Source: a virus. From it: a DNA stretch of 46,877 nt. Below, in pieces: positions 1,751 to 18,800 of the stretch. The notes beneath the pieces are model-generated. The model was given only the letters and a program-made list of their open reading frames with translations, was not told the DNA's origin and ran no database searches. How positions within the stretch are numbered: the stretch's first letter is position 1; each line of letters starts with the position of its first letter. The stretch lies in the IMG/VR virus record IMGVR_UViG_3300008050_000078, positions 1-46,877 of that record; one strand, written 5' to 3'. The position numbers and the translations under genes were made by a program.

Positions 1751-2120
1751 CAGTCATACCCTTCCCCACCATTGAAAACGATATGACCTTATCCCTCATG
1801 CTTGCTTGATACGTACGTCTGTTAAGGAACGGGTCTCTAACCTCAGCCTTATAGAAAGCACGGTTCTTTAACTCATCCTCAACGTTACGTACCTTGTATA
1901 CGTAGCCGTTCATTGGACACGGGTCTTGTGCATCCCAATCCACAGGGTATACAGCGTAGCTAGGGTAATGCTTCAGTGCTAAGTTCAAGAACTGACTTGC
2001 ATTATTGATACATGAGCCGTTGTAATAGGTTTCCCAATTACCTTCGTCATCATGACGTACCTCTATACTGAAGTCATTGCCTAAGCGAGGGACTATAGCA
2101 ATGTATGGTTGTTTGTTCAT
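1743..2120 (-). CDS. Hypothetical protein (125 aa)
   Basis: Unknown soluble protein with no visible zinc site, signal peptide or membrane helix. The N-terminal third looks like beta strands (IAIVP, FSIEV) and the C-terminal half is basic. The ATG at 2120 has a strong AGGAG with a seven-base spacer. It is the first gene of the tightly overlapping block 2120-19; a 152-base gap precedes it. Confidence 0.7.
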   Translation of the reverse strand: MNKQPYIAIVPRLGNDFSIEVRHDDEGNWETYYNGSCINNASQFLNLALKHYPSYAVYPVDWDAQDPCPMNGYVYKVRNVEDELKNRAFYKAEVRDPFLNRRTYQASMRDKVISFSMVGKGMTDA

Positions 2121-2272
2121 AGATATCTCCTAAATATATAGAACACCACCTGTCGCAACAGCAACACGCTGTCACTCTGTTTATTATTATACCGCTCCTA
2201 CTAGTCCATCTCTGTGGCCGTCTCGTGGGTCGTTTCCATCCCTTTCACCATGTAGGTCACGGTACAGTTATT
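2121..2272 (-). promoter_or_regulatory. Intergenic gap with a -10-like TATAAT
   Basis: This 152-base gap separates the zinc-finger gene from the block starting at 2120. On the minus strand a perfect TATAAT (positions 2191-2186) preceded by GG lies about 65 bases upstream of the 2120 start. I find no convincing TTGACA at the right distance, so a host sigma70 promoter is possible but weak. A 16-codon frame in the gap has no ribosome site and is not called. Confidence 0.3.
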
Positions 2273-2461
2273 TTAATTGTCTGGGTATGACATCTTATGT
2301 CCACAGTCCTTGCACTGATAGCATTGATGCTTACCTTGTTTGTCTGTTCTTTGGTGTGTGTCTGTGCAGTTCGTACCACTACAGTTATCACAAGTATAAC
2401 CCGTGACAAACTGTAGTACAATTTTGTTTCCCTCTTTGGGGAAATCTGTAACATGTATCAT
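2273..2461 (-). CDS. Small multi-cysteine zinc-finger protein (62 aa)
   Basis: The protein has six cysteines, as CDNC and a further Cys near residues 23-31 and CYQCKDC near 46-52, followed by GHK, an arrangement typical of a zinc ribbon. Such proteins usually bind nucleic acid or a polymerase, so a transcription-related role is plausible but inferred. The ATG at 2461 follows AGGAGG at ideal spacing; the longer frame to 2533 has no ribosome site. The ribosome site itself is complementary to an upstream segment (see 2467-2511), so translation may be regulated. It is preceded by the structured segment 2534-2815. Confidence 0.75.
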   Translation of the reverse strand: MIHVTDFPKEGNKIVLQFVTGYTCDNCSGTNCTDTHQRTDKQGKHQCYQCKDCGHKMSYPDN

Positions 2462-2466
2462 AAGAT

Positions 2467-2511
2467 ACCTCCTGTTTATTGTAAGCCTGTATCGTAGGCT
2501 AGACGGGAGGT
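2467..2511 (-). promoter_or_regulatory. Hairpin that could hide a ribosome site
   Basis: In the mRNA, ACCTCC (2511-2506) can pair with GGAGGT (2472-2467), which is the ribosome site of the gene starting at 2461. Between them AGCCT (2500-2496) pairs with AGGCT (2488-2484), bringing the outer arms together. This would mask the ribosome site. No other gene here has such an anti-Shine-Dalgarno segment in its leader. Confidence 0.45.
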
Positions 2512-2533
2512 TATTACTGCAATGTGAGGGCAT

Positions 2534-2815
2534 CTAGTTTAGGCAGCCTAGGACTGCTCGCCTCCGTGCATGTCTCACAAGGTTGTCGTCACGAACACCC
2601 GCTGTGTCATTACATTAGTAAAGCGGGGTTACACAGGGATGTGCGTGACGACAACCCCTCGCTATGAGGTGACATACCCGACCTCAGTCTCTGGGTCTCA
2701 GCATGTCAATGCCGTGTGTCAATCTTCGGGTTGTTCCTGAGCACCATGACACCGTGTCTCAGGCAAGGTCACATTTGTATGTAGGCTGTGACATAACCTG
2801 AGAAAAAAGCAAGGG
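2534..2815 (-). ncRNA. Structured non-coding segment, possible phage RNA
   Basis: These 280 bases hold no credible gene but many inverted repeats. The largest is a perfect 13-bp stem, 2581-2593 with 2644-2656. Inside it CCCGCT (2598-2603) pairs with AGCGGG (2622-2627) and CTGTGT (2602-2607) with ACACAG (2631-2636), in an order that implies a pseudoknot or two alternative folds. Further stems: CCTC/GAGG 2657-2669, GACAT/ATGTC 2671-2707, CCTGAGCAC with GTGTCTCAGG 2736-2763 (one bulged base), and GTCACA/TGTGAC 2768-2792. ATTGACA occurs twice 13 bases apart on the minus strand. It follows a terminator-like hairpin. It could be a stable RNA, a leader, or an origin or packaging element; the sequence does not decide which. 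Confidence 0.4.
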
Positions 2816-2846
2816 TTACGCTGACGTAGCCTTCTTCTTTCCCTTG
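2803..2846 (-). terminator. Likely intrinsic terminator after the 71-aa gene
   Basis: On the minus strand CAAGGG (2846-2841) pairs with CCCTTG (2815-2810), with an inner GCT/AGC helix (2830-2820), followed by C and six T residues (2808-2803). The stem lies across the stop codon at 2816. The long loop makes it weaker than the terminators at 3323 and 6818. Confidence 0.5.
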
Positions 2847-3031
2847 TTTGCTTCAGCTTTACGACGATCGAGCTCGTCTAAGGCTTCATTCCGTACCGCA
2901 TCCCCATTCTTGGGGTTGTTTGCGATGGATTCAACGAGATGTTGAGCCCGTTCACACCATGGCTTAGCCACTTTCTTTGTAGTCTGTGTCAATCCATGTT
3001 GTTCGCAACGTTGTTGTGTAGTTAGTGCCAT
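2816..3031 (-). CDS. Small basic helical protein (71 aa)
   Basis: Unknown. It is almost wholly helical by composition, with a Lys-rich C-terminus (KGKKK near residues 63-67) and two cysteines. I chose the ATG at 3031 because GGAGG lies seven to eight bases upstream; a longer frame to 3088 begins with TTG and runs through the promoter-like sequence. It stands alone, with a sigma70-like promoter in front and a terminator-like hairpin at its end, so it may be a separately controlled early gene, possibly DNA-binding. Confidence 0.65.
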   Translation of the reverse strand: MALTTQQRCEQHGLTQTTKKVAKPWCERAQHLVESIANNPKNGDAVRNEALDELDRRKAEANKGKKKATSA

Positions 3032-3060
3032 TGGACACCTCCATTGTACCGAAGAGGTTG

Positions 3061-3088
3061 TACATACGAGAGACATCGGTACTGTCAA
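3061..3088 (-). promoter_or_regulatory. Sigma70-like promoter
   Basis: On the minus strand a perfect TTGACA (3088-3083) is followed after 16 bases by TATGTA (3066-3061), four of six matches to TATAAT. It lies about 30 bases upstream of the start at 3031, suitable for early transcription by the host polymerase. Confidence 0.45.
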
Positions 3089-3322
3089 ACGTACGTGATA
3101 ACTAAAACAGCTATCAATTATGCCCGACCGAAGGTCGTGCCGTAGACATATGTAGTATACATAGGTATAACCTAGGTCTATCCTTAGGTATATATATCAA
3201 CCTGCTATCATTAACCCCAACTATAGATCCATCATACATTCATACGGTAGACCTCCGTATATCTGGGTAGGGGTATCACTCTTCAGAGGATTTTCGAATG
3301 ACCTATACTACCCCGATACATT
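3089..3322. other. Non-coding regulatory gap
   Basis: About 230 bases without a credible gene between the terminator of the 164-aa gene and the 71-aa gene. It holds three AGGTMTA repeats (3163-3192) beside an AT-rich run (TATATATAT at 3189-3197), the motif CTAAGGATAGACC on the minus strand (3187-3175), and a short hairpin CGACC/GGTCG near 3125-3137. The layout suits a promoter or replication control region, which is inference. Confidence 0.4.
3163..3192 (+). repeat. Three AGGTMTA repeats one helical turn apart
   Basis: AGGTATA (3163-3169), AGGTCTA (3174-3180) and AGGTATA (3186-3192) are direct repeats starting 11 and 12 bases apart, so they would lie on one face of the helix. They run into TATATATAT. 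Such phasing is typical of operators or replication iterons. Confidence 0.5.
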
Positions 3323-3355
3323 AAAAGGACTGACCCCCGCTAAGAGGTCAGCCCC
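3323..3355 (-). terminator. Intrinsic terminator after the 164-aa gene
   Basis: On the minus strand a nine-pair stem (GGGCTGACC with GGTCAGTCC, one G-T pair) is followed by four T residues (3326-3323). It begins three bases after the stop codon at 3359, so it should end the transcript from the RNA polymerase gene. Confidence 0.7.
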
Positions 3356-3358
3356 GTG

Positions 3359-3853
3359 TTACTCAGCTGTCTTCTTTATAGAGCAGCCGGGATAGAACTC
3401 ATTGAACTTGTGATAGAACCGAGCATCAGCAATAGCCGATGTAGCTCCAGCACCTCCATCGAAATCTATCCTCTTGTCCAAGCCTGGTATCCATAGCTTT
3501 GCAGCTACATGTACAAGGTTAGCTTCGTCATCATGGACTAAGTCCATTGACTCCACTAGGAACGTGGTGAACATCTTGATGATTGTAACACAATCAACCT
3601 TATGAAACACCTGAGGATCTAATCCGTGAGTATCCATGAACCCATTGAGAGTTACCTCTGCGTTGGGTCTCGCAGGCTGATACTTCCAAGGTCCCGTGCC
3701 ATCCTTATGGATGAGACGGTACGAGGTCGTATCATCTGGCGTCTTCATGGCTGCGATGATCAGTGTGTTAGCACCATCATCCCAGTACTCGCGGGTATAG
3801 TTCCGACGAGTGAGCTCGCCACCTAAAGTGTGTGGTTTCTTACGTAAAGCCAT
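3359..3853 (-). CDS. Hypothetical protein downstream of RNA polymerase (164 aa)
   Basis: No family recognised. It is a soluble mixed alpha/beta protein with no visible catalytic signature, signal peptide or membrane helix. The N-terminus is basic and the C-terminal third has a GGAGAT stretch near residues 137-142. The ATG at 3853 follows AGGAGG with a ten-base spacer. It shares a transcript with the RNA polymerase gene, from which it is separated by 65 bases containing a large hairpin, and it ends at a terminator. It could modulate the polymerase or be another early host-interaction protein; neither is shown by the sequence. Confidence 0.7.
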   Translation of the reverse strand: MALRKKPHTLGGELTRRNYTREYWDDGANTLIIAAMKTPDDTTSYRLIHKDGTGPWKYQPARPNAEVTLNGFMDTHGLDPQVFHKVDCVTIIKMFTTFLVESMDLVHDDEANLVHVAAKLWIPGLDKRIDFDGGAGATSAIADARFYHKFNEFYPGCSIKKTAE

Positions 3854-3918: not shown

Positions 3919-5631
3919 TTAAAATCCGAGCATCCATTCATTCTCAGGAATGATTACTTGATCTCGGTCAGTCTTCATTAAATCTAACCGATGGGCTTTG
4001 TTAACACCAAAGGTATATGACCTCTGTACGTTATGTACATCAGCTAGGAAGAAAAGAGTCGCATCATGGATGGCAGCTTTTATCCCGCCTCTTGCTTTAA
4101 CAATAGCAGTAGCCATTGAGAAAGAGTCACGGTTATGGATAACAAACGCCGCCGCGCTTGTACCCTTGTCGTCCATATGCGGTGAGAATAGATTAGCTGT
4201 CTCGGTACTAGGACGTACCTGTCCAGCTTCAAATATCTCATGATGATACGAAGTTCTGGAGAACTTGTTCCTCTTAAGTCGAGGACATAGCACCTGTGTG
4301 CCATCGCATCGTTCAATCCAAAGGCCTTCAGGAGAGGAGTGCTCCTTCCAGTGATCACGCCAGTACTCGACGAACACAGGAACCTTTGGGACTTTACTTC
4401 TGAAAACTGAGGCGAACTTCACACAATATGCCCAGTACATATCTGCACGAACATAATTCCAGTCGACATCTTCATCGATGTCTTCTGGTGTGGGTTCACC
4501 AAACATCTCGCTGAGGATTGGATGCAACTCTATTGGCTTGTACTTGCCGTCCTTCAGTAGGTCTTCTACTGCTTGGGCTTTAGCACAGTTGCTGAATAGT
4601 CCTTTGACTCCAGCACCATAAAGGCTAGGGGTGACTCCACCCTTAGCTAATGCAACTAGATCCTCTGTCGAGTAGACCTTAAGAGCTGGTATGTCCCTAC
4701 GTAACCCCTCTGCTACAGTGAGGTGTAGGTGTTTGAAGCTCTTACGAAACGGTAACCCTCTCATTAATGCTTCAGTATCACGCATCATCAACAGTTGATG
4801 AACATAACCTGAACTCTTCGCATCACCCTCTACTAGAATGTTAGTCTTACCAGTAGTAGCAATACGATGCCAGCTTACACACTGGGCATACAAGAGGGGA
4901 TTCCCGCCATTAAGAATATACTTAGTAGGATCAGCAAGTATCTCAGCCGTAAGGCTTTGATTCAAACCGAGACCTTCCATGTATTTCTCTTGGCGTGTGA
5001 GACTTGTCTTGCGAGAGTAAGGCATCACGTTACGAGCACGTGAATCCTTTTCCCACATCGAAGCGACAACGCCCTTAGTATCCGCATAGATACGGTCAGC
5101 CTTGTCAAAGGTAGAGAACCTCACTCTAAAGGTGCTGTCACCAATAGCATTTAGTTCTTCTACAGTTCTCACTGGGTACCGCTTATCCCGTGCTTCGATG
5201 TTCGTCTTACCTATCTCATCATATACAGCATTAAGTGTCTCGTTGATTTCAGGATCAACTATCCACTCAACTTGTTCTAATGAGTGCGCTGCTTCTTCAG
5301 CTACCTCAGACGTACTGTGATTACCCCATCGTGAAACACGACGAGGTGTCATAGCAATCAATTCAGCTTCGTTCTCTGGGCTAATAGTCAGTCGTGTCCT
5401 TTCTTTCACGACGTCATCACCTACTAGCGTGTCATCCAGAGCGATGGCCTGCTTGATAACAGCAACAACCTGATCATGTATACTAGACGTAATGCCTAGT
5501 TCCAGGCAGGTTTGCCACACGGGTCCACGAAGTTGGTCACAAATATCAGACAGGTCATATCCGTGGTATAGATACTGTCTGAGTTGAGTCATTTGAAGGT
5601 ATGACTCTACAACCTCTTTAATGGTTTTCAT
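3919..5631 (-). CDS. Single-subunit DNA-dependent RNA polymerase, shortened (570 aa)
   Basis: This is a T7-family RNA polymerase, which would transcribe the later phage genes from its own promoters. Motif A is GDAKSSGYVHQ with the metal-binding Asp at 270. Motif B is K330 to Y338-G339, with the same eight-residue K-to-Y spacing as T7 K631 to Y639. Motif C is IHDATLFF with Asp 523. A DRIYAD block near residues 179-184 resembles the T7 WRGRVYA region. T7 polymerase has 883 residues with 536 before motif A; here only 269 precede it, so most of the N-terminal promoter-binding and lysozyme-contact domain is missing or very reduced. The position of the essential T7 Arg 627 is Val 326. The ATG at 5631 has AGGAG at good spacing; an upstream in-frame GTG at 5760 has no clear ribosome site. 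Confidence 0.88.
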   Translation of the reverse strand: MKTIKEVVESYLQMTQLRQYLYHGYDLSDICDQLRGPVWQTCLELGITSSIHDQVVAVIKQAIALDDTLVGDDVVKERTRLTISPENEAELIAMTPRRVSRWGNHSTSEVAEEAAHSLEQVEWIVDPEINETLNAVYDEIGKTNIEARDKRYPVRTVEELNAIGDSTFRVRFSTFDKADRIYADTKGVVASMWEKDSRARNVMPYSRKTSLTRQEKYMEGLGLNQSLTAEILADPTKYILNGGNPLLYAQCVSWHRIATTGKTNILVEGDAKSSGYVHQLLMMRDTEALMRGLPFRKSFKHLHLTVAEGLRRDIPALKVYSTEDLVALAKGGVTPSLYGAGVKGLFSNCAKAQAVEDLLKDGKYKPIELHPILSEMFGEPTPEDIDEDVDWNYVRADMYWAYCVKFASVFRSKVPKVPVFVEYWRDHWKEHSSPEGLWIERCDGTQVLCPRLKRNKFSRTSYHHEIFEAGQVRPSTETANLFSPHMDDKGTSAAAFVIHNRDSFSMATAIVKARGGIKAAIHDATLFFLADVHNVQRSYTFGVNKAHRLDLMKTDRDQVIIPENEWMLGF

Positions 5632-6817: not shown

Positions 6818-6847
6818 AGAAAAAAACAAGGGAATACTCCCTTGTTT
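6818..6847 (-). terminator. Strong terminator after the giant gene
   Basis: A 10-bp perfect stem (AAACAAGGGA 6824-6833 with TCCCTTGTTT 6838-6847) with a four-base loop is followed on the minus strand by a run of T residues. It begins about 25 bases after the stop of the giant gene and separates the structural unit from the early genes. Confidence 0.85.
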
Positions 6848-6871: not shown

Positions 6872-9800
6872 CTACCCCAGTAAATCCGCAAGTCCTGCAC
6901 TTGTGTTCGATGGTCCCTTGGAACTGGCTACCATTTTATCTATAGGTGTTGTTACGCCTTGGACGCCTCCTTGGATATCAACAGGTGCAGGCTCCTGTGT
7001 CGCCTCAGCGGCTTCCTCAGGAGCTTGGGCTATTTGTGACCCCCAAGGTCTCTGGTTAGCTGCGGGTCCCTCAGGGAAAGTCTGAGCTATCATACCTTCG
7101 ACATCTACACCCAGGTCGTTAAGTATGTGACGTAGGTAGACATAATCTTCTATCTCGTCCTTAGGTTCAAAGGTTTCGGCGTCAAAGATAAGCTCAAGGC
7201 ATCTCTTTCTAACCTCTTCGCTGTCACCTGCAACTGAACTCATCATTGCCTCTAGATTTTCTAAGGGTATGTTTGCCCAATCAACAGACTCAAAATCAAA
7301 GTCCTCAGGCATAGTCTTACCATACGGATTTGTAGTTGCTGGATTCATCAAGTCAAAGTGCTGAGGAGGGGTTGTATTGTGTGGGTCTACTGTAGAATCA
7401 GGGGTTTTCTCTTTTGTTTGCCACTCCCACCTGAGGTAGTTATACCACAACAGACGTATGGATATATCTCCTAAAACAGGACTGAACTTTAGAAGGTGCT
7501 CCATAGCTTCTTGCCACTGCCCAGCGGCTGCATACATAATACCCTCGTTGGCTCCATCAATGAAGTTCAGTGCAGCACCCACGCCAACAGAAGTCATCGC
7601 TCTTTCAACCATACGACCATCTGCATCAAGCGACGCCAAGCCCAATCCTGCTACCATAGAAGCATATCTACCTAGTACAGGAAGACGTGCTCCGTATTCA
7701 GCTACAGTCCATCCACGCTGAGAAGCTAATTTATCTTGTAGTCTATCATAACCCGTGGCTGAAGCAGCAGTAGTCAGAGTAAGCATATATAACATATCTA
7801 AAGCAGATGCTAATGCTATGGTCTGTAGATACTTACCAGGCGAAACACGTCCCGAACGTCTGATTAAAAAGTTACTAGCAAACACGGTAGGGTATCTCAT
7901 GTACACTTCCCAAGCTTTGCCTAATACACTGTTCTTTGTATACATATCAAAAGCATTAGGCACCAAGATTATATCTTCAATATAAAGACGTTCAAGGTGT
8001 CGTAAGCCTTGTAGCAATTCCATTTGTTCTCTAAAGCCTTCTTGCTGAGCAGGTACTTTACTCTCTACGTCAGAACCCGGTTCACGGCTCAGCTTTATCT
8101 CTAATTCTTTTCTCATTTGATTGATATTATAATAAGGCTCTCCTTTATCTTTAATCAAGGATGAGTAAGCTGTTCCTTTTTCTGGGGCATGAACAGTACC
8201 TCCTAGCATAGCTCTTAACATCAGGAATCTGTTTTTCTTTAATAAGCCTGATCGCATAAGGTAAATAGGTATCTCCATATTTCCCCCCGCTCCCAAAGTA
8301 GCTACATTAGCTACAGTACTATCTCCTAATATCCCCCTACCGTATCCAGCCTTTCGGGCTATATCCTTAAACATTCTGGAATCTTCAGCAGGTAAACGAC
8401 CATTCTCATCCTTGGCTGCATCTAACATATTAACAAAGTTTTCCATATTGTTGGTGTGTATTTCTCTACCTACCCACCTACGCATCTCTCCAGCTCTCTG
8501 GTAAGTGATGCCCTTCAGTGCTACATGGGCTCCTAGGACAGTCAGGTTTCCATATGCCCGTAAACCTTTCTTAGTGCCCTCCCATAGAGATGAGTTAGTT
8601 GATAACATATCTGACAGGTGCTCAAAGTCAGGAGCATAGGACTGTGTTAATGCTTCCGTAACATGTTTTAGATCTATGCCCATCTGTCTTCGGGCTGTAG
8701 GATTCGCCGCATACAGAGGAGCCACTGCCGCTCTTAGAGCAGAAGCAGGATTAGCAGGTCTCAAGACTTGGTCAGCAAAGTTTAAACCACCTTCCACAAT
8801 AATTGTAGCAGCTGTCAGGTTTGTTCCATATGCTATCTTGGCGATGTCAGGAAATACCTTAACAACTTCATCTACATATGGGTGGATACCACTGTCCTGT
8901 CTATGGATGCCTTTAGTGAATTCATATTTCTCCCTGAGGATTCTTAGGCTCTTCTTAAACTGTGCTCCCTTTCCTGTAGTAAGGTTTATCTCAGTTCCAT
9001 CGAGATTGGCAAAAGGTTTTTCGGATTGAGCAACTCTCTCAGCAAGAGTTAGGATTTGGTCAAAGGTTCCTTTGGTATTAAACAAGCGAGATAACAAAGC
9101 TCTTTCAGAAATATCTGAACCCAGTCCTTTTTGTAACTCCTTCATAATTGCAGTCGGGTCTGTAATGAAATGTTCATCCAAACCTTTATCAGCCAAACGT
9201 TGAAGGGATGGCTCTACCCAAGAATCTTTTTTCATAGATACCCCTTGTTCAGCTAAGTGCATAAATGTTGCTGCATGTAGTTGAGAAACAGATGTAAATT
9301 TTAGTTCTCCCGATCTCATACCGGAAGGGAGTAATTGATTGGCAAGACCCCAAGCCTTTAATCTAGAGGCTGATTCATTACTAGGTTCGGCCTTAGCTGC
9401 TTCCAAGTAATCGCGTTTCATTTGAGCTGATTCTAACCCCATATGATTCCTTATATCTCCCCACTTAATCTTCCGAACTAACATGCCTTTCATTAAACCT
9501 AATTGGGCACTTTGTATAATAGCTAAGAGATTTTCCTTAACTTCAGTAGCTGCAGTAGGATCACCTAACGTTTTTATCATGTCGTCTAGATCTTTTTTTG
9601 TACGTCCCTCTATCTGATCCTTAAAGAACTTTCTAAACCCCGGCTTCATGTCACCCATGTCTAACACGAATTCTGTACTGTCGGTTATCCTTGGTAAATA
9701 TCCACGAGCTACTGATAGGGTTGCTGGATCTATATAACCATTCTCTTGTCCTAACTGATGCTCTATTTCTTCTACTACAGTTTCACGTATCTTAGGAATA

Positions 9801-12800
9801 AACGACTCATTAAGATCTCCTGCTATCATAGGCTTAAGTTTAACAGGGGACTTGTTTTCAAAACCCATAGGACTAACGAATCCAGACTCTTGAGCCTGTG
9901 ATTCCATCCATTCTACATACCGTCGTACTGTGAGTGCTGCATTATCTACCGTATCCTGAGCAGTTCTTATATCTTCTGGTTTTACTATTGATCTGCTTAG
10001 GGCTGTTTTCCCACCAAAGCCAAGCCTGTTCTCCTTATAGCTGTCAGGTATTTGGATTTCATAATCTGGATCATCGACCTTTTTCCATATCTCCATTGCC
10101 AGTTGTTTTTTTACTTCCGTACGTTTCTTCTTTCTCATCATAGTAGCTGGGGGTAGCATAGTATCTAGATACTCCATATCTACCATGACTTCGCTCTCAA
10201 ATTCCTTAGTACGTTCGACAGCATCACGTATACCCAATGCTCCGTTGAGGTTAGTGTAGTGCCCTAAGGTTGTTATAACTTGCTCATCTAGTAGAGATGA
10301 TAACAAGTTAGCTATAATTAAGGGGCTGCCATAAGTAAAGCTTGCTCCTGTATTTCCTACAACGAAAGTAAGTAAGAAAGACCGCATCCATCCCGGACCA
10401 TCATTACCACCTCGCTGCCATTTTTTACTAAGTCCTAGCATGAGTCCTCCCAAGCCTTCTGACATAGGAGAACCATGTTCGCTGTGTATTTGATCTAGTA
10501 TAAAATGGAAACCCGCTCTAACATCTTCGGGGGTTAAACTGCTTTTCTTTCCCAACACGGGCGGCTCTAGCACCTTATCTAATAAAAGAACTTGTCGGGT
10601 TATAGTCTCCCCTGTGGCAGGGTTCTCCCATGACTCCTCGTCGAAAGCTCCTGCTTCTCTCAGGTGAATCTCTCCTGTAACCTGTTCAAATCTATTAAGA
10701 CCTGCCATATTTAGTTTATTGCCGAAGTCTCCTCCGTCAATGACATCTGAGTTTGTTGACGTAAACCAAGATTCTAGTTCTTGGAACGTACCATAATCCG
10801 GATGGTGTCCTACATTAATAGTATCATCGCCCGTTTCCTTACGTTTTTCCTTCGCCCATTCCTTCATGTCTTTATCCATTTCATGATACTGTTCTACCTT
10901 AGCTCTGTAGTCAACATCATTCATAGGACCAGTTGTACCATCCTCCATAACACTGCTGGGATGTTTAGGGGTTTCATTATGAGGGAATACAGCCTTATCA
11001 TATTCTGCGTCAGGATTACCCACCTCGTTTATCATCATTGCATTACTCTCTGGATCTCTCCCCAGAGTACGCATCACTAAATCATCTAAGGTTTGTGATA
11101 GTTCTGGGTGGTCAGATTCAAAGTTAGTGAAAACGCTTCTTACATCCCATAGTATATTCCTAACCCAGTTAATAATCTTATCCACTATAGGAAGAGTAGA
11201 TGATATTATTTTGTAATCCTTTGCATTAAGCCCTTCTATATAAGGAAGCTGGTCTGCCATTAAATAGTAAGATACCATACCAGCTATAAATTCCTCATCA
11301 CTGTTTATGTAAGAGAGTATTTCAGCTTCTGCTTGTGGATTCATTTCTCCACCATGGAAAGCAAGAACTAATTTCTTAATTAAAGCTTCTCCATCTGGAG
11401 TATTCTTTAACTGTTGCCAATCAGCCCAGTCGCCACGATTGTTCTCAATAAACTTATGTCGAGCTATGTGAGCCATCTCATGTGTAACTACTTCCATCAG
11501 GCTTACCTTATCCTTAAACTGAAGACCCTCGCCTTCACCCTTAAGGGCTTTACCCAGACGCACTACATACTTGCCACCAATAGCCGATGCCTTACCTAAA
11601 GTAACCGACGCACTTAAATTTAATCTTACACCCTTTAATAACATAGGGTTTATAGTATACAAACGAAGAAACATAGCCCTTAGCATCTGTGCTTCAGACT
11701 CGTTAAGGAGACCTACTGTTGTTTCATTACCATTAGCATCCACCTCAGTCATCTCAGTTATTCGACTTATATCACTATTGATGTTTATCAAGTCGTCCTT
11801 TATTATACCATGGACTCCCGGCGTATCAATAAAGTCCCTGAATTTCCCCTCATTCTTAGAACTTCTAAAGAGACCGTGGCCAGCTAATTCTTTTACGTCT
11901 GGTACATCTAATAGGTTCGTGGTTAACTCACTTGAATCGTACATCCTATCTACCTCTGTTCCAATGGCGGCATTAAACTGCCGTTGAGACGACAGCTTAT
12001 CTGCATCGGACATAGCAGCATACCGCTCGGTAACGTTTGCCCATTTCAAGAACTCTGCAAAGCTAGGAGCGTGTTCCTGCCCTGAGTGTGCTGCGTATTC
12101 TCTAGCTTTCCAAAACGTACCGCTTCGTACCATATTAGTAGTACCGAAGTCAGTGATGGATATTTTCTCATCGCTATTTCTACTAAACACATTAAGTATA
12201 TCATTAGTATATACCAAGGCATTAGTAAGCACGGTCTCAAACTCCGCATCAGTCAGGTCTTTGAGACCCTTATCTGTCCTGTTGATATAAGTTTTTAATT
12301 CCGCAGCAGTAAGAGTCTTGGTGTAAGTGGTAGTCGATCCGCTAATATCTTGTCTTTTAGAATTCCGTAACTCTAAAGTCATAGCAAGAGCTACTGTTTT
12401 AACATGGGCTTGTCCCATATGTTCTCTAGCATATTGCATATCATTACGTATCTCAGATATCATCACTCTAGATGTACCATCTACAAGTCCTTTACTTTCT
12501 ATAAGGTTCAGGTGTTTGTTTAGAGATCTATAATGCATTTCGTTAAAGGTAGATCCGAAAGGTAGAGTACTATGAGGGGGATTCGATTGATATCCCCAAA
12601 GATCTATTACCCTAGTTACAGCTCCCTCCTGAGTACGACTCCTGTCATTAAGCTTTCTAGCATCGCCTACTCTTCCTTCAGATAATAAATCTAAAGCTTC
12701 TGAATCTACGATAGCTTCCCTATGAGCCTTACGTTGTTCGAAGCCTGTTACATTATCTATTATTTGAGTCATAGGGTTATCAGCTTCATAGTCTCCAGTA

Positions 12801-15800
12801 TCCTCGTTCTTCCGCCCACCCATTGGCTTACCTGTTATATTCGTCCAGTCTACTGCTTCTACAAATCTTTGATTAGAGTTGAGAGCAAACATCTTAAGTG
12901 CAGACTCTTGACTAATAGCTAACGTAATATTAGCACCGTGTCTCTTAGTGGGAGCACCTACCAAGGTAGTAGCAAAAGACTTAACAGCTGATCGTAGAAC
13001 AAATCTATGCGACTTTCCTTCGTAGTCATAAGATACCTGTATGTCCATCATCCCGTTATCTAATGCTTCTACCGTCTTGCCGGGCGATTCGTGTGTAGCC
13101 TCTACCAAAGTAAGATCAAAGATCAAGTCATCCCCTTGCGCTTCGTGTTGAAGCTCCATGGTTTTGTTATACAGATCTAGCTTTTCTTGTGGGTTAAGTA
13201 TAAAATGCATAGAGTTAGGTTCTTTTATTAACCTAGCGAGCCTGCCGTCTCCCTTAAACAACTCCATCACAGCCTTTGTTCTGTATCGAGCAAGATGCGA
13301 GTCTAGAAGAAGCTTAGGGAAATCAGCACTCTGTGCAATTTTGGATGTAATCGTTAGTTGCAGATCCTTAATATCCCCAAGCCCTTCGCCGGGATTGAGC
13401 ATGCTATTGCCCTTTGAATCTTTCCAGTCCCACATAAAGCCCTCTGCAGGGAACGATCCCGCCTTTATGGCGTCTTGGTTAAGAAGGTTCCTGTCAAACA
13501 GTCCTTTGAGGATTATAGTACGCCATTCGTCTAGACCGATGTTGGGATCTAATACCATAGCTGGCATTTCCTTATCTTCAAAATGAGTGGTGGGCCCCTT
13601 CTTTTCTCGTATATCTCTACTGAGCCACCCTACTCTATCAAGTTCAAAGCGTAAAGTATTCTGTTCTTCGTCCCAATTAACATCTTCCCCATTTTTTATC
13701 TTGTTGTTTACTCTTCTCAGATGCTTATCTCTTACCTTCTCTTGATTCATCATCACATAGAAATAAGGATATAGTTCAGGATTATTATCCAATTCTAAAC
13801 TATAACCCGCCTCTGCTGCATATATTCGGATCTCGTTATAAAGCTGTCCAGCTCTTATAGCTGCCTTTGGATTAGCTAACTCCAGCCCGCCGAGGTCTTC
13901 CTTAAGCATAGGCATAGGTCTAGGTAAACTTGAGTTGTTCCAAGGACCCACTCCTCCAAACTTAGTAGGATCTTGTGGCGGAACATGCTCGTCGAATCCC
14001 GCAGCCTTATGTATATCCGATTGCTGGCTTTGTTGTTGGCGTCTCATGTGTGCCAGTTGTATCACAGAGATACCCCTAGAGTGATATGGTGTTAAGAATG
14101 ATTTAGGTTTAGGAGAGAACTGTTGTTTTGTTTCTAATATAACCCTGCCACTCTTTTCATGGAATTTAGGTTTACCCTCTATTGGGTTTATCTTAATAAT
14201 TGCCTTACCTAATAACTCTCCTGCTTGCTCAGAATAAAGCTTGCCTCCTTTAGCACGTTCTACAAGTACCCTTCTTGCCCACGATCCACCTTCCTGCCCA
14301 GCTGTCTTAACTAGCCGCCTTTCCAAAGCCAGCTCTTCCTTTAGTTTAGGATGACGTGATTCGTCATTCTTTGCCCATCTCCTCAGCTGATCTGCATAGT
14401 GCACTACTCTATCTACGCCCTCTGTTTGACCTGGAATAGGAGGTGCTTCTTGGTTTGCTAATACAATTAATGCTTGTTTTAATATTAGGTTATCGATATG
14501 TTGTTCGAAGTCTAAAGGAACTTCTTTCAGTCCCTCCTTCTTCGCCTTAGCAACAGCCGCTTCACGATTGCGTGGCATGTCAAAGTATGGCGTATTTTCA
14601 AGAGTGAATACTCCTGTAGCTTCATGTGCATCCTTGAACTTCATTAGCCACTCTCCGTGTATCTCTACTTTATTCCACGCTGTTAAAGAACCTGTCTCTC
14701 TTAAGACTTCTTCTCTTCTTCCTTGAATAAATGCCTTATATTCTGGAGTACCGACACCCACCCTTCCCTTCTTAGCACCCGTAGTAGTTCCCAAGTGTGT
14801 ATTATATTGTACATACCCTCGATCAGATTCTTCTGAAAGACGTGTAGACATGAACTGTAAAACACCCTCTGCCTCTAAACCACCTAGATCAGCGGGGTCG
14901 TGATCTGCAACCCCTTCACCTTCATCTACCATTTTCCAATGGTCCATGTCAAAACCATGTGCTGAAGCTCCTAGCGTGTTCAGTGCAGAGAATACAGGTA
15001 CAGCGTCCCAAGACATCTTACCTCCGTGTAATATTTCTTGTAGTTCTTTCCAAAGATCTGTCCCAGGACTAAAGTCTCCATTAGGCTCTCCGTCTATTAG
15101 CGCCCTAGCCTTGTCCATACGGGGTCTAAAGAGTCTGACTTCTTCTGCCAGATTTTCAGTAGTAAGAACGCCATGCTTTTGTACTGCCTTTTTCTCTATA
15201 ATAGCATCGAGTATGTTTAGTAAAGTTTTCCCTTGACTGAGTTTACCTCTAATTGAAGCGTTAACTTCGGCTTCAGTCATGCCCTGCCTTGCAGCACGGG
15301 TACCGATGATGTCTTTCCATACCGCTAATGTAGATTCTTTAGAGCTAGGTATACTCAAGTAACTAAGAACCTTCTGTTTCTTTTTGTTATCCAGCTTAGC
15401 TGCTGCAGATATTATCCTGCCAGTTATAATCTCGTCGTTATTCATTAAGAAACCCCTAAGGACTTCCATGTGTTTCTTGTAATCGGGACCCCTAACTTCT
15501 ATAACAGAGTCCACACCATGTAATGCGGAGTACGCCACATTAGCTGCTTCAATCGCTTCAAAGCCTTCTCCCTCGTTTATAAACTCTTGGTTAAAGGAAT
15601 TTTTACCTGCAGTATAATGCTCATTACGCAGAAGTGTTTTCATGATATTTCTAGCTGAGTCAAACAGAGCCATCTTATCGGGACCCCAATTTTTAGTTAT
15701 AGCATCTGCTTCATATAGATCGGTTATCTCATCAAAGATAGAAAGAATCTTCTCTATAGGCTCTAGAGCTTCTCGCATCCCTTTATCCCTGGTATTCTTA

Positions 15801-18800
15801 ATTACGTCCCTGATATGTTTCACCGTGAACTGACCGCCACCTACGTAGTAAGCCTCCGGATTCTTCTTAAAGAGTTTATCCTTAACACCGGGAACCCACT
15901 CACCATCCTCTCCTTCGTGCCCGTGAACTATCTCTCCGATTATCTTCTTAGCTTCTGGGTCGAAAAGTTTGCTTAGGTTATCGAACTCATTCATGATACT
16001 AACAGAGTTATCTGCTTCGTTTCTTGTACTGAATAGTTCTCTGCCTGCTACTTCTTCAGTCCAACTACCCTTACCGTGCTCCTTCTCGTATTCAATCTTT
16101 TGACGCATGTCTTCATCTACAGACCTAAGTATTGCTTTCTCTCCCAGACCTTTCCATAGAGGCGAAGATAATTCAAGAGCCATGGTCTGCAGCACGGCTG
16201 GATAAGGAACCATAATAGCTGTTCCTGTAGTAAGATAATCAAAGTGATCATCAATCATTTTACGGTATCTTAAGTGTGAACCATCTGCCACAATCTTTTG
16301 GTCCATGATTAGGGAGGTGGCGTGGTTGGGTGTGTCATACAAGAAGTCTGTAAGGAAGTCCTTTAAGTCCTGCTTCGTCAAGGGCTTCTCGTGCATGGAA
16401 CCATGTACAGGCATAGGTATTAACTGAGGTCTTCGATGTACGCCTAAGTTAATGCCTATATCTCCAGGACTCCATCCCTCGAAAGCGAATGCTTCTAGTT
16501 TTGCTCTTTCCTTAGCAGTTAATTTAGAGAGGTCTAATCGTACAATTTGCTCGACACGGGCTTCGCTAGTCCCCTCTAGTATAACTTTAGTAGCGTGTTT
16601 AGGTCCCTCAGGAGAAGCTCCGTGTGTGGTAGCTCTTCCGGGTCTAGATATACCTAAAGAGGGACCGCCCTTAACTTGTCCCATCTCTCCGATAGAACCA
16701 CTATTCTTTGTTGTGGCATGTCGAGCATCAGTACTTCTTAAATCCTTAAAGAGAACGAGGTCTACCATACCCTCAGCAGCTCTCTCAGGACTGTGCCATC
16801 CTTGCTTGCCATTGCCTAAGCTTTCTATAGTAACGCCCCTTATCAGACGATGGGGATTTAGTACTAAGTTTGTTAGAAATTCTATCTCGTAGGTTAAGAA
16901 GTCAGCATCCGTCCACGGGGCATCCGTAGTTCCTCCATAGTTTGGATCGAAGTTAGAGTGCATTTCAAAATCAAGTTGTCTCAATATAGCACTTCTGGTA
17001 ACTGGGTGCATACCCTTATATACTTCCGCGAGACGTTCGGTCGCGTGGCTTCGATATACCCCTCTGAATACAGCTGCGCTTTCTGGAGTATCCTTTAGGA
17101 ACTTTATAGGATGTCCTGTTTCAACATCATATTCTGCTATGTATCCGTGTTTACCAAACAGCTCAGCGCCTACTATCTTATCTGCGGCATCTATTTCTTC
17201 TAAGTGAGCTATAGTCTGGGCTAACTCTAGTGAATGATCTTCATGCTCCGCCATCTTTGTAAGATGTTCTACTAAACTTAGCTTCTGTTCTTTTACCTGA
17301 GTTAATCTACTCTGGGCTGCAGCAATCTCCTCATCTACTATACGTAAAACATCTTCTACCCTATACGTTAGGTAATGTCCCTTAGCCTCTAGTACCGCTT
17401 CTGACATATGTCCTTTGTGATTAGCAATAGCGTTGGCGAATACAACGTGCATTTTTAAACCTCTGCCGTGAGGTGTATCGTGTTTAAACCTATCAGGCAG
17501 AGCGGAGTACATTCGCATAGCTTCTATTGTTGTGTGTGATCCGGGACCGTCGGTCTGTACTTGAGTTGATCCTGCTATGACTTGTAAGTTGACTCCAAAT
17601 TCTACCCATGCCCTAGCTTCTAGTATGTCAGCCTGCTCTTGGGTAACCCCAGGAGCTTCCGAGGTTACGTATTTTTCTGTTGCTATTTCATCAGGAGAAT
17701 TATCCACCCTTATCACAGTCCCTACTGGAACATTGTGTAGGAAAGTTTCATTAGTATAAACAGCCCTCTCCCCATCTACCAGAAGCTGACCATCTATAGT
17801 TAAGTCACCTATCTCCTCAGTTCTCTGGGCATAAGCATTAGAATACATGGTCTCAGCTTCTTCTAAAGTATATGTCTTTCTATCAGCTGGCTTAAACATT
17901 TCTTCTTTTACCTGAGCTAGTATAACATCCTTTGATAATTTAGGATTATCCTTTTGTATTTCCCTAACTCTTTCTAATATCTTTTTCTTTGTATCAGCAT
18001 CAGAGTCTCTTACGAAACGTTCCCTGGACGTCGCTTCAAGAGCGTTATCAAGATCTTGTTGAATACTAACTACATTCTGATCCTTTGTTCCTGCGGGTAA
18101 CATGTATTCCAACTCTTTCTGTGTAAATACAATTCCGTTGAAAGCTCCCGTATAGTTGTTTAAGAACTGTGGATCTGCGATAGCTGTTTCAGCTTCCGCC
18201 CTAGTCATCCCCTCAGCCATCAAGGTCTGTACCCCCTGTTCCTTTCGCCTAGATACCTGCCCCTCCCAAGAAGTCTTGTTAGCGGTTAATTTAGCCGTAC
18301 GTCCCTTTTGAAACTCCATAACTGTTTGCCATGTCTTGGCTGTAAGGAACATGTATTCCCCACGTTTTCTTTTCGCCCTATTGATATTCATTATCTGGCT
18401 CAAACGCTCGGTCTTAAAAGCCCCCTCTGATTCATAAGCCTTATCCAGTGCTTCTTTAAGAGCCTTGTTTTCTGGGGAGTTGTCCAACTTAGTTTCCAGT
18501 TTTTCAGCGGCTCTATTAAGTTCGTGGATTAACTTCTCACCCTTAGCTCTACTAATACCGAGCACACCTTCTTTTTTATTTATAAGCTTGTCTAATAGTT
18601 TTAAATTACGTTTGCCTTTGATTAAACCCGAGTCTTTAAGCTTTTTAAGAAACTTAATATCTTCTGGGGATAGCCTAGAAAAATCTAATGAAGCATAAGT
18701 TCCGTCTGTTTTGATTGGAAAGAGGGAACCCACCAATGAGGTGAGTACCATTCTTATACTATCCTCGTTCTCAAGAGAGAAATTCTTATTATGAGCAGCC

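What the first reader, a model, noticed from the sequence alone, without database searches (positions are those of the whole stretch)
2534..2815. Strongly folded non-coding segment with a 13-bp closing stem and a possible pseudoknot
In a genome with overlapping genes, about 280 bases are left non-coding and filled with inverted repeats. Inside a perfect 13-bp stem, two 6-base helices are interleaved (CCCGCT with AGCGGG, CTGTGT with ACACAG), implying a pseudoknot or a switch, because the arms share two bases. Four more hairpins follow towards 2792. It precedes a gene whose ribosome site also looks masked. A phage regulatory RNA, riboswitch-like leader, or replication/packaging element are all open.
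Basis: partly seen in the sequence, partly recalled or inferred. Interest (0 to 1): 0.76.

Follow-up and report, generated by a model that had tools for sequence, protein, structure and literature searches.

The report
Structured RNA in marine phage island
A marine T7-like virus carries a strongly folded, conserved non-coding RNA (on the strand its genes use) in a spot where related viruses carry other structured RNAs, including known phage RNAs and tRNA-like ones, so this looks like a reserved RNA-carrying slot in the genome.

Summary
The 13-bp perfect stem (2581-2593/2644-2656) is the longest such stem in the window, and none of 100 shuffled genomes has one. The gap folds better than all 200 of its shuffles, more strongly on the minus strand, the coding strand. 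The non-coding stretch is 2815 to 2462 (354 nt), because the next gene starts at ATG 2461. One relative (G003, IMG/VR 3300025133_000094) has the hairpin (84%) and the 3' segment (89%), both better conserved than flanking genes (64-72%). In the hairpin, 4 pairs changed on both sides and one became G-U; this is unlikely by chance and fits minus-strand RNA. The proposed pseudoknot is not supported: its helix is 13.6 kcal/mol worse than the nested fold and mismatched in G003. In about a dozen relatives the same slot (polymerase gene, small gene, then 350-1290 non-coding nt) holds other structured RNAs: manA, ORF-less tmRNA-like domains, YrlA-like RNA. Best reading: a two-part RNA in an early-operon transcript, a hairpin module with a near-invariant loop and a 3' leader domain covering the next gene's ribosome site. 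Function is inferred; only two homologues exist. No Rfam family matches.

The parts
2462..2815 (-). non-coding island: 354 nt between the stop codon of the 71-aa gene and the ATG of the Zn-ribbon-like gene
   Evidence: ORF maps; in-frame N-terminal extension from 2533 is frame-shifted between window and G003 while nucleotides stay about 89% identical; fold z -5.9 over 376 nt
2581..2656 (-). hairpin module: P1 13 bp (2656-2644/2593-2581), P1b 6 bp (2642-2637/2600-2595), P2 6 bp (2636-2631/2607-2602), apical loop 2630-2608 with P3 (2621-2618/2613-2610)
   Evidence: fold -41.6 kcal/mol; homologue in G003 84% identical with 4 compensated pairs and 1 G-U; model R1 105.6 bits on minus strand vs 39.4 on plus
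2608..2630 (-). apical loop sequence AACCCCGCUUUACUAAUGUAAUG, one difference in G003; most likely recognition element
   Evidence: alignment A7
2462..2580 (-). 3' leader domain: UGUGAG/CUCACA (2579-2574/2528-2523), GCAG/CUGC (2557-2554/2546-2543), GCCU/AGGC (2499-2496/2488-2485)
   Evidence: 89% identical to G003, 3 pairs changed on both sides and kept; model R2 finds only window and G003 with significance
2467..2473 (-). Shine-Dalgarno AGGAGGU of the downstream gene, pairs with ACCUCC 2511-2506
   Evidence: pairing probability about 0.98 in window; in G003 the site is mostly covered too but mainly by other bases
2657..2815 (-). 5' part of island: multi-hairpin domain, U6 run 2808-2803; not shared with G003 beyond chance level
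   Evidence: fold -60.8 kcal/mol; 65.8% aligned identity against a shuffled level of 53-68%
2273..2461 (-). downstream gene, 62 aa, four-Cys Zn-ribbon-like, true start ATG 2461
   Evidence: SD AGGAGGT 2473-2467; 47% identical to G003 gene in the same place
2816..3031 (-). upstream 71-aa gene; the relatives examined carry a small gene of similar size here
   Evidence: RBS GGAGGTGTCCA-ATG; weak Pfam Unstab_antitox 3.4e-4, below cut-off; small ORFs in the same position in relatives

Best explanation
The segment is a real structured RNA made from the minus strand as part of the transcript that runs from the polymerase-like gene region into the small-gene (early-like) operon. It has two conserved modules. 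The first is a long hairpin (P1-P1b-P2) whose stem covaries and whose 23-nt loop is almost invariant. It most likely works as a recognition element (protein or RNA binding to the loop), and its roughly 25 bp of near-continuous duplex would also make it a natural RNase III cutting site, separating the non-coding part from the mRNA. The second is a 3' leader domain that folds next to, and in the window over, the ribosome site of the Zn-ribbon-like gene and probably sets its translation (cis-regulation, as proposed for manA RNAs). The site is one occupant of a conserved slot in this virus group that accepts different structured RNAs. Shown here: structure beyond chance, strand, conservation above that of the genes, compensatory change, conserved slot with known RNAs in relatives. 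Inferred: transcription, RNase III cutting, loop recognition, translational control.
For: Fold better than all shuffles, stronger on minus strand. Unique 13-bp stem. Homologue in G003 with 4 compensated pairs plus a C-G to U-G change, P about 5e-5, and 3 more doubly changed pairs in the 3' domain. Hairpin 84% and 3' domain 89% identical against 64-72% for flanking genes. Minus-strand model score 105.6 vs 39.4 bits on plus. Same gene order around a non-coding island in relatives, with sense folding mean z -2.3 against -0.4 for this whole window. Rfam families manA (three relatives), tmRNA-like (one above cut-off, two below) and YrlA-like (below cut-off) inside those islands. SD covered in window at about 0.98.
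Against: Only two sequences carry these modules, so covariation is counted on one pair of genomes. No transcript data. SD masking ranks about fourth of 20 starts in this window, and in G003 the anti-SD partner mostly differs. The 5' part of the island is not conserved. In G003 about 320 nt, including a manA RNA, lie between hairpin and 3' domain, so the two modules need not act together.
Confidence: 0.55

Rival explanations
1. The hairpin is only an RNase III processing signal (and the other hairpins are processing or terminator stems), as between early genes of T7; the loop has no function of its own.
For: Two helical turns of near-perfect duplex in an early-like operon of a T7-like phage; stem covaries while length is kept.
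Against: A processing stem does not explain the nearly invariant 23-nt loop or the 89% conserved 3' domain. RNase III sites in T7 early RNA are recalled from general knowledge, not tested.
Confidence: 0.2
2. The island is a store of trans-acting small RNAs (such as decoys for host translation or defence factors); the window's modules are one or two such RNAs and do not regulate the neighbouring gene.
For: Relatives carry tRNA-mimic RNAs in the island: tmRNA-like tRNA domains without ORF and YrlA-like RNA. Island content differs even between near-identical strains (L204 vs G027: 99.7% over 612 nt, then different content). Modules are shared in mosaic fashion.
Against: The window itself has no tRNA-like domain or Rfam match. 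The 3' domain sits against the start codon in both genomes and stays linked to the same gene.
Confidence: 0.25
3. DNA-level element (cruciform, protein-binding palindrome, replication or packaging site) rather than RNA.
For: Perfect inverted repeat; non-coding; compensated changes would also keep a palindrome.
Against: The C-G to U-G change and the shared U-G pair are pairs only in minus-strand RNA; the plus-strand model score is far lower; loop and non-palindromic 3' domain are conserved as well.
Confidence: 0.07
4. Chance or base-composition artefact, or unrecognised coding sequence.
For: Several coding tiles in the window fold with similar z.
Against: 0 of 100 shuffled genomes have such a stem; conservation exceeds that of genes; the reading frame shifts between homologues.
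Confidence: 0.03

Closest known systems
manA RNA (Rfam RF01745; Weinberg et al. 2010, PMC2864571)
   Same: Structured RNA of marine phages, proposed riboswitch-like 5' leader; occupies the same island in three relatives, in G003 directly between the window's two modules.
   Different: The window has no manA match; hairpin and 3' domain have other sequence and structure.
RNase III processing stems of T7 early mRNA
   Same: Long imperfect hairpins between small genes in a T7-like phage (general knowledge).
   Different: Here the apical loop is nearly invariant and a conserved leader follows; cutting untested.
tmRNA tRNA-like domain / YrlA RNA (RF00023, RF02553)
   Same: Found in the same slot of relatives.
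   Different: No tRNA-like fold in the window island.

Membership tests
manA RNA (RF01745) | covariance-model score at or above 55.2 bits | tested here: not met
   no match in window at gathering score nor at E up to 10 in 2000-3400; met in G003, G010 and G009
any Rfam 15 family | match at or above gathering score | tested here: not met
   best sub-threshold hit mir-233, 28.5 against 67 bits, a hairpin chance match
tRNA or tmRNA | ARAGORN or Rfam recognition | tested here: not met
structured RNA (general) | compensatory base changes in predicted stems | tested here: met
   4 double, 1 single compatible, P about 5e-5, but from one pair of sequences
riboswitch-type leader | located in 5' UTR with expression platform | tested here: inconclusive
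   3' domain abuts start codon, SD covered, but masking is not unusual in this window
riboswitch-type leader | ligand binding changes expression | not testable with these tools
   needs experiment
RNase III processing site | cut by RNase III | not testable with these tools
   needs experiment
H-type pseudoknot | both helices form together and are conserved | tested here: not met
   helices share bases; second helix mismatched in G003; nested fold 13.6 kcal/mol better

The most novel reading that the evidence does not exclude
A whole group of marine T7-like viruses keeps a hypervariable RNA-cargo island at the start of its early-like region, into which structured RNAs of unrelated classes (the window's new hairpin and leader, manA, ORF-less tmRNA-like domains with an alanine-type G3-U70 acceptor, YrlA-like permuted-tRNA-like RNA) are swapped, probably to interfere with host translation or defence: an RNA counterpart of phage anti-defence gene islands.
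Probability: 0.3. Interest if true: 0.85.

Novelty: new member of a known kind. Interest (0 to 1): 0.6.

Why it matters
The segment adds two candidate structured RNA families from an uncultivated marine T7-like virus. More broadly, it reveals a conserved genomic slot in which such viruses carry interchangeable structured RNAs. That gives a defined place to look for phage RNAs acting on the host, and a setting in which the unexplained marine phage RNA manA could be studied.

Tried and rejected
Plus-strand reading: rejected (gene direction, G-U pairs, scores). Pseudoknot: rejected; an attempt to force the alternative helix by constraint did not take, so its energy was evaluated directly. Known RNA family: none. 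tRNA or tmRNA in the window: none. Homologues in annotated phages and plasmids: none. Loop and 3' motif patterns in 2.9 million viral contigs: only G003 is a true hit. Bacterial genomes: no match to either motif, so no host RNA that it copies was found. Relatives by the polymerase-like protein or the 71-aa protein alone: none; the terminase opened the group. SD masking as main evidence: set aside after the control. A 200-nt tile scan timed out.

Full report
WHAT IS THERE. The window is a virus record. Its terminase, major head, scaffold and tail proteins belong to T7-like podovirus families, and the genes around the finding lie on the minus strand. The 13-bp stem is the only one of its length in the window; 0 of 100 shuffled genomes and 0 of 5,000 shuffles of the region reproduce one. 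Both strands fold better than every shuffle, the minus strand more so (z -6.6 against -4.2). A tile scan shows that strong folding is not unique to this place, so folding alone would not be proof.

STRAND AND LIMITS. On the minus strand the segment lies between the stop of a 71-aa gene (2816) and the next gene. The ORF caller starts that gene at 2533, but a clear Shine-Dalgarno (AGGAGGT 2473-2467) stands before ATG 2461. In the relative G003 the in-frame extension above this ATG has the same length but is frame-shifted in the middle by a pair of indels, while its nucleotides stay about 89% identical. The constraint is on the RNA (or DNA), not on a peptide. The non-coding island is therefore 2815 to 2462.

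HOMOLOGUE AND COVARIATION. Searching with the terminase gave 80 relatives. Of the 47 of their records searched, only G003 (IMGVR_UViG_3300025133_000094) matches the island: the hairpin at 83% and the last 130 nt at 85% by BLAST. These two pieces are better conserved (84% and 89%) than any gene or gap around them (64-72%; shuffled level 53-68%). In the hairpin four pairs changed on both sides and still pair (G-C to C-G, U-A to A-U, C-G to U-A, G-C to A-U) and one became U-G. The outermost pair is lost, and one P2 pair faces a gap, rebuilt by shifting one base. Random placement of the same number of changes gives as many compensated pairs in 5 of 100,000 trials. The structure was taken from the window alone, so the test on G003 is not circular; the alignment was made by hand. 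The 3' domain has three more doubly changed pairs, but there the structure came from both sequences. The loop AACCCCGCUUUACU(A/U)AUGUAAUG is otherwise invariant. G-U pairs exist only in the minus-strand RNA, and the covariance model scores 105.6 bits there against 39.4 on the plus strand.

PSEUDOKNOT. The interleaved helices share bases. The nested fold is at -41.6 kcal/mol and the alternative at -28.0. In G003 the 3' strand of the second helix has changed to a mismatch while its loop strand is unchanged. A switch cannot be excluded, but nothing supports it.

THE SLOT. In relatives the order is the same: a divergent single-subunit RNA polymerase gene, a 165-215 aa gene, a gap, a small gene of about 70-110 aa, a non-coding island of roughly 350-1290 nt, then small genes shared by the group. 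Some islands are cut by contig ends. The islands fold better than average on the sense strand (mean z -2.3 against -0.4 for this whole window). Pieces are shared in mosaic fashion at 70-95% identity, while the polymerase-like proteins are only 17-26% identical to the window's. Rfam names some pieces: manA in G003, G010 and G009; a tmRNA-family tRNA-like domain without mRNA part in G009 (above cut-off), L204 and L219 (below cut-off but E below 1e-11); a YrlA-like RNA in L204 and G027 (below cut-off); and a Pistol ribozyme just upstream of the island in G003. In G003 a manA RNA lies between the window's two modules. Two near-identical strains (L204 and G027) differ in island content. The window's modules match none of these families.

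RIBOSOME SITE. In the window the SD is about 98% paired with ACCUCC 2511-2506; in G003 it is mostly covered too, but chiefly by other bases. A control over 20 starts in this window places it about fourth, so masking is common here.

MECHANISM. Most likely the RNA is part of the operon transcript. The hairpin with its near-invariant loop is a recognition and probably processing element. The 3' domain is a cis-acting leader of the Zn-ribbon gene. Shown: structure, strand, conservation, covariation in one pair of genomes, conserved slot. Inferred: transcription, processing, binding, control. Main rivals are a bare RNase III site and a trans-acting RNA; the tRNA-like RNAs in the same slot of relatives make the latter serious.

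COMPARISON WITH WHAT IS KNOWN. manA RNAs were described as riboswitch candidates of marine metagenomes and T4-like cyanophages, often in 5' UTRs (PMC2864571). The window's RNA shares setting and, by inference, role with them but is not a member. Marine phages with structured RNAs early in the genome have been reported before, such as a two-piece tmRNA with a glutamine riboswitch behind an early promoter in the methylophage Melnitz (PMC9004378). The tmRNA-like hits here differ in lacking the mRNA-like part.

LIMITS. Two homologues only; no expression data; metagenome collections could not be scanned; some islands are cut by contig ends; fold z-scores outside rest on 12 shuffles.

Noticed in passing
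window 3919-5631 (-): Divergent single-subunit RNA polymerase-like protein (about 570 aa; profile matches mitochondrial RNA polymerases, E 2e-5; likely start 5631). Several relatives carry it plus a second, about 820-aa polymerase match some 8-12 kb downstream, so the group seems to have two.
   Followed up: partly
L188:3444-3525 (-), L204:984-1065, L219:4065-4149: 82-85 nt RNAs matching the tmRNA tRNA-like domain with no mRNA-like part (51.0, 41.1, 39.1 bits; cut-off 47); acceptor GGGGGUG/C(A/G)CCUCC-A keeps the alanine-type G3-U70 pair by reading of the sequence.
   Followed up: partly
L204:607-715, L186:4440-4501: YrlA-like RNA (40.3 bits, cut-off 69) that reads like a circularly permuted tRNA: T arm, acceptor, then D arm.
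   Followed up: partly
L099:3168-3362, L168:5815-6009, L188:3832-3637 (-): manA RNA (RF01745) in the same island of three T7-like relatives; the 2010 description names T4-like cyanophages and marine metagenomes (PMC2864571).
   Followed up: yes
L099:2127-2193 (+): Pistol ribozyme (66.1 bits) directly after the 201-aa gene, upstream of the small gene and island, in G003.
   Followed up: no
window 3032-3358 (-): AT-rich gap after a strong terminator (3355-3326) with CCTAAG/CCTAGG/CCTAT repeats (3188, 3176, 3165); relatives have similar motifs. Possible promoter or operator region.
   Followed up: no
window 6872-21511 (-): One ORF of 4,879 aa just upstream of the polymerase-like gene region, presumably a giant virion protein.
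   Followed up: no
L204:1-1401 vs L186:3483-4778: Near-identical strains (99.7% over 612 nt) abruptly differ in island content, then share modules again at 95-98%: recent gain or loss of RNA modules, or a chimeric contig end.
   Followed up: partly
window 6818-6847 (-): Terminator hairpin AAACAAGGGAGTATTCCCTTGTTT with T tract after the giant gene; the U6 run at 2808-2803 shares its CTTG(C/T)TTTTTTCT end.
   Followed up: no
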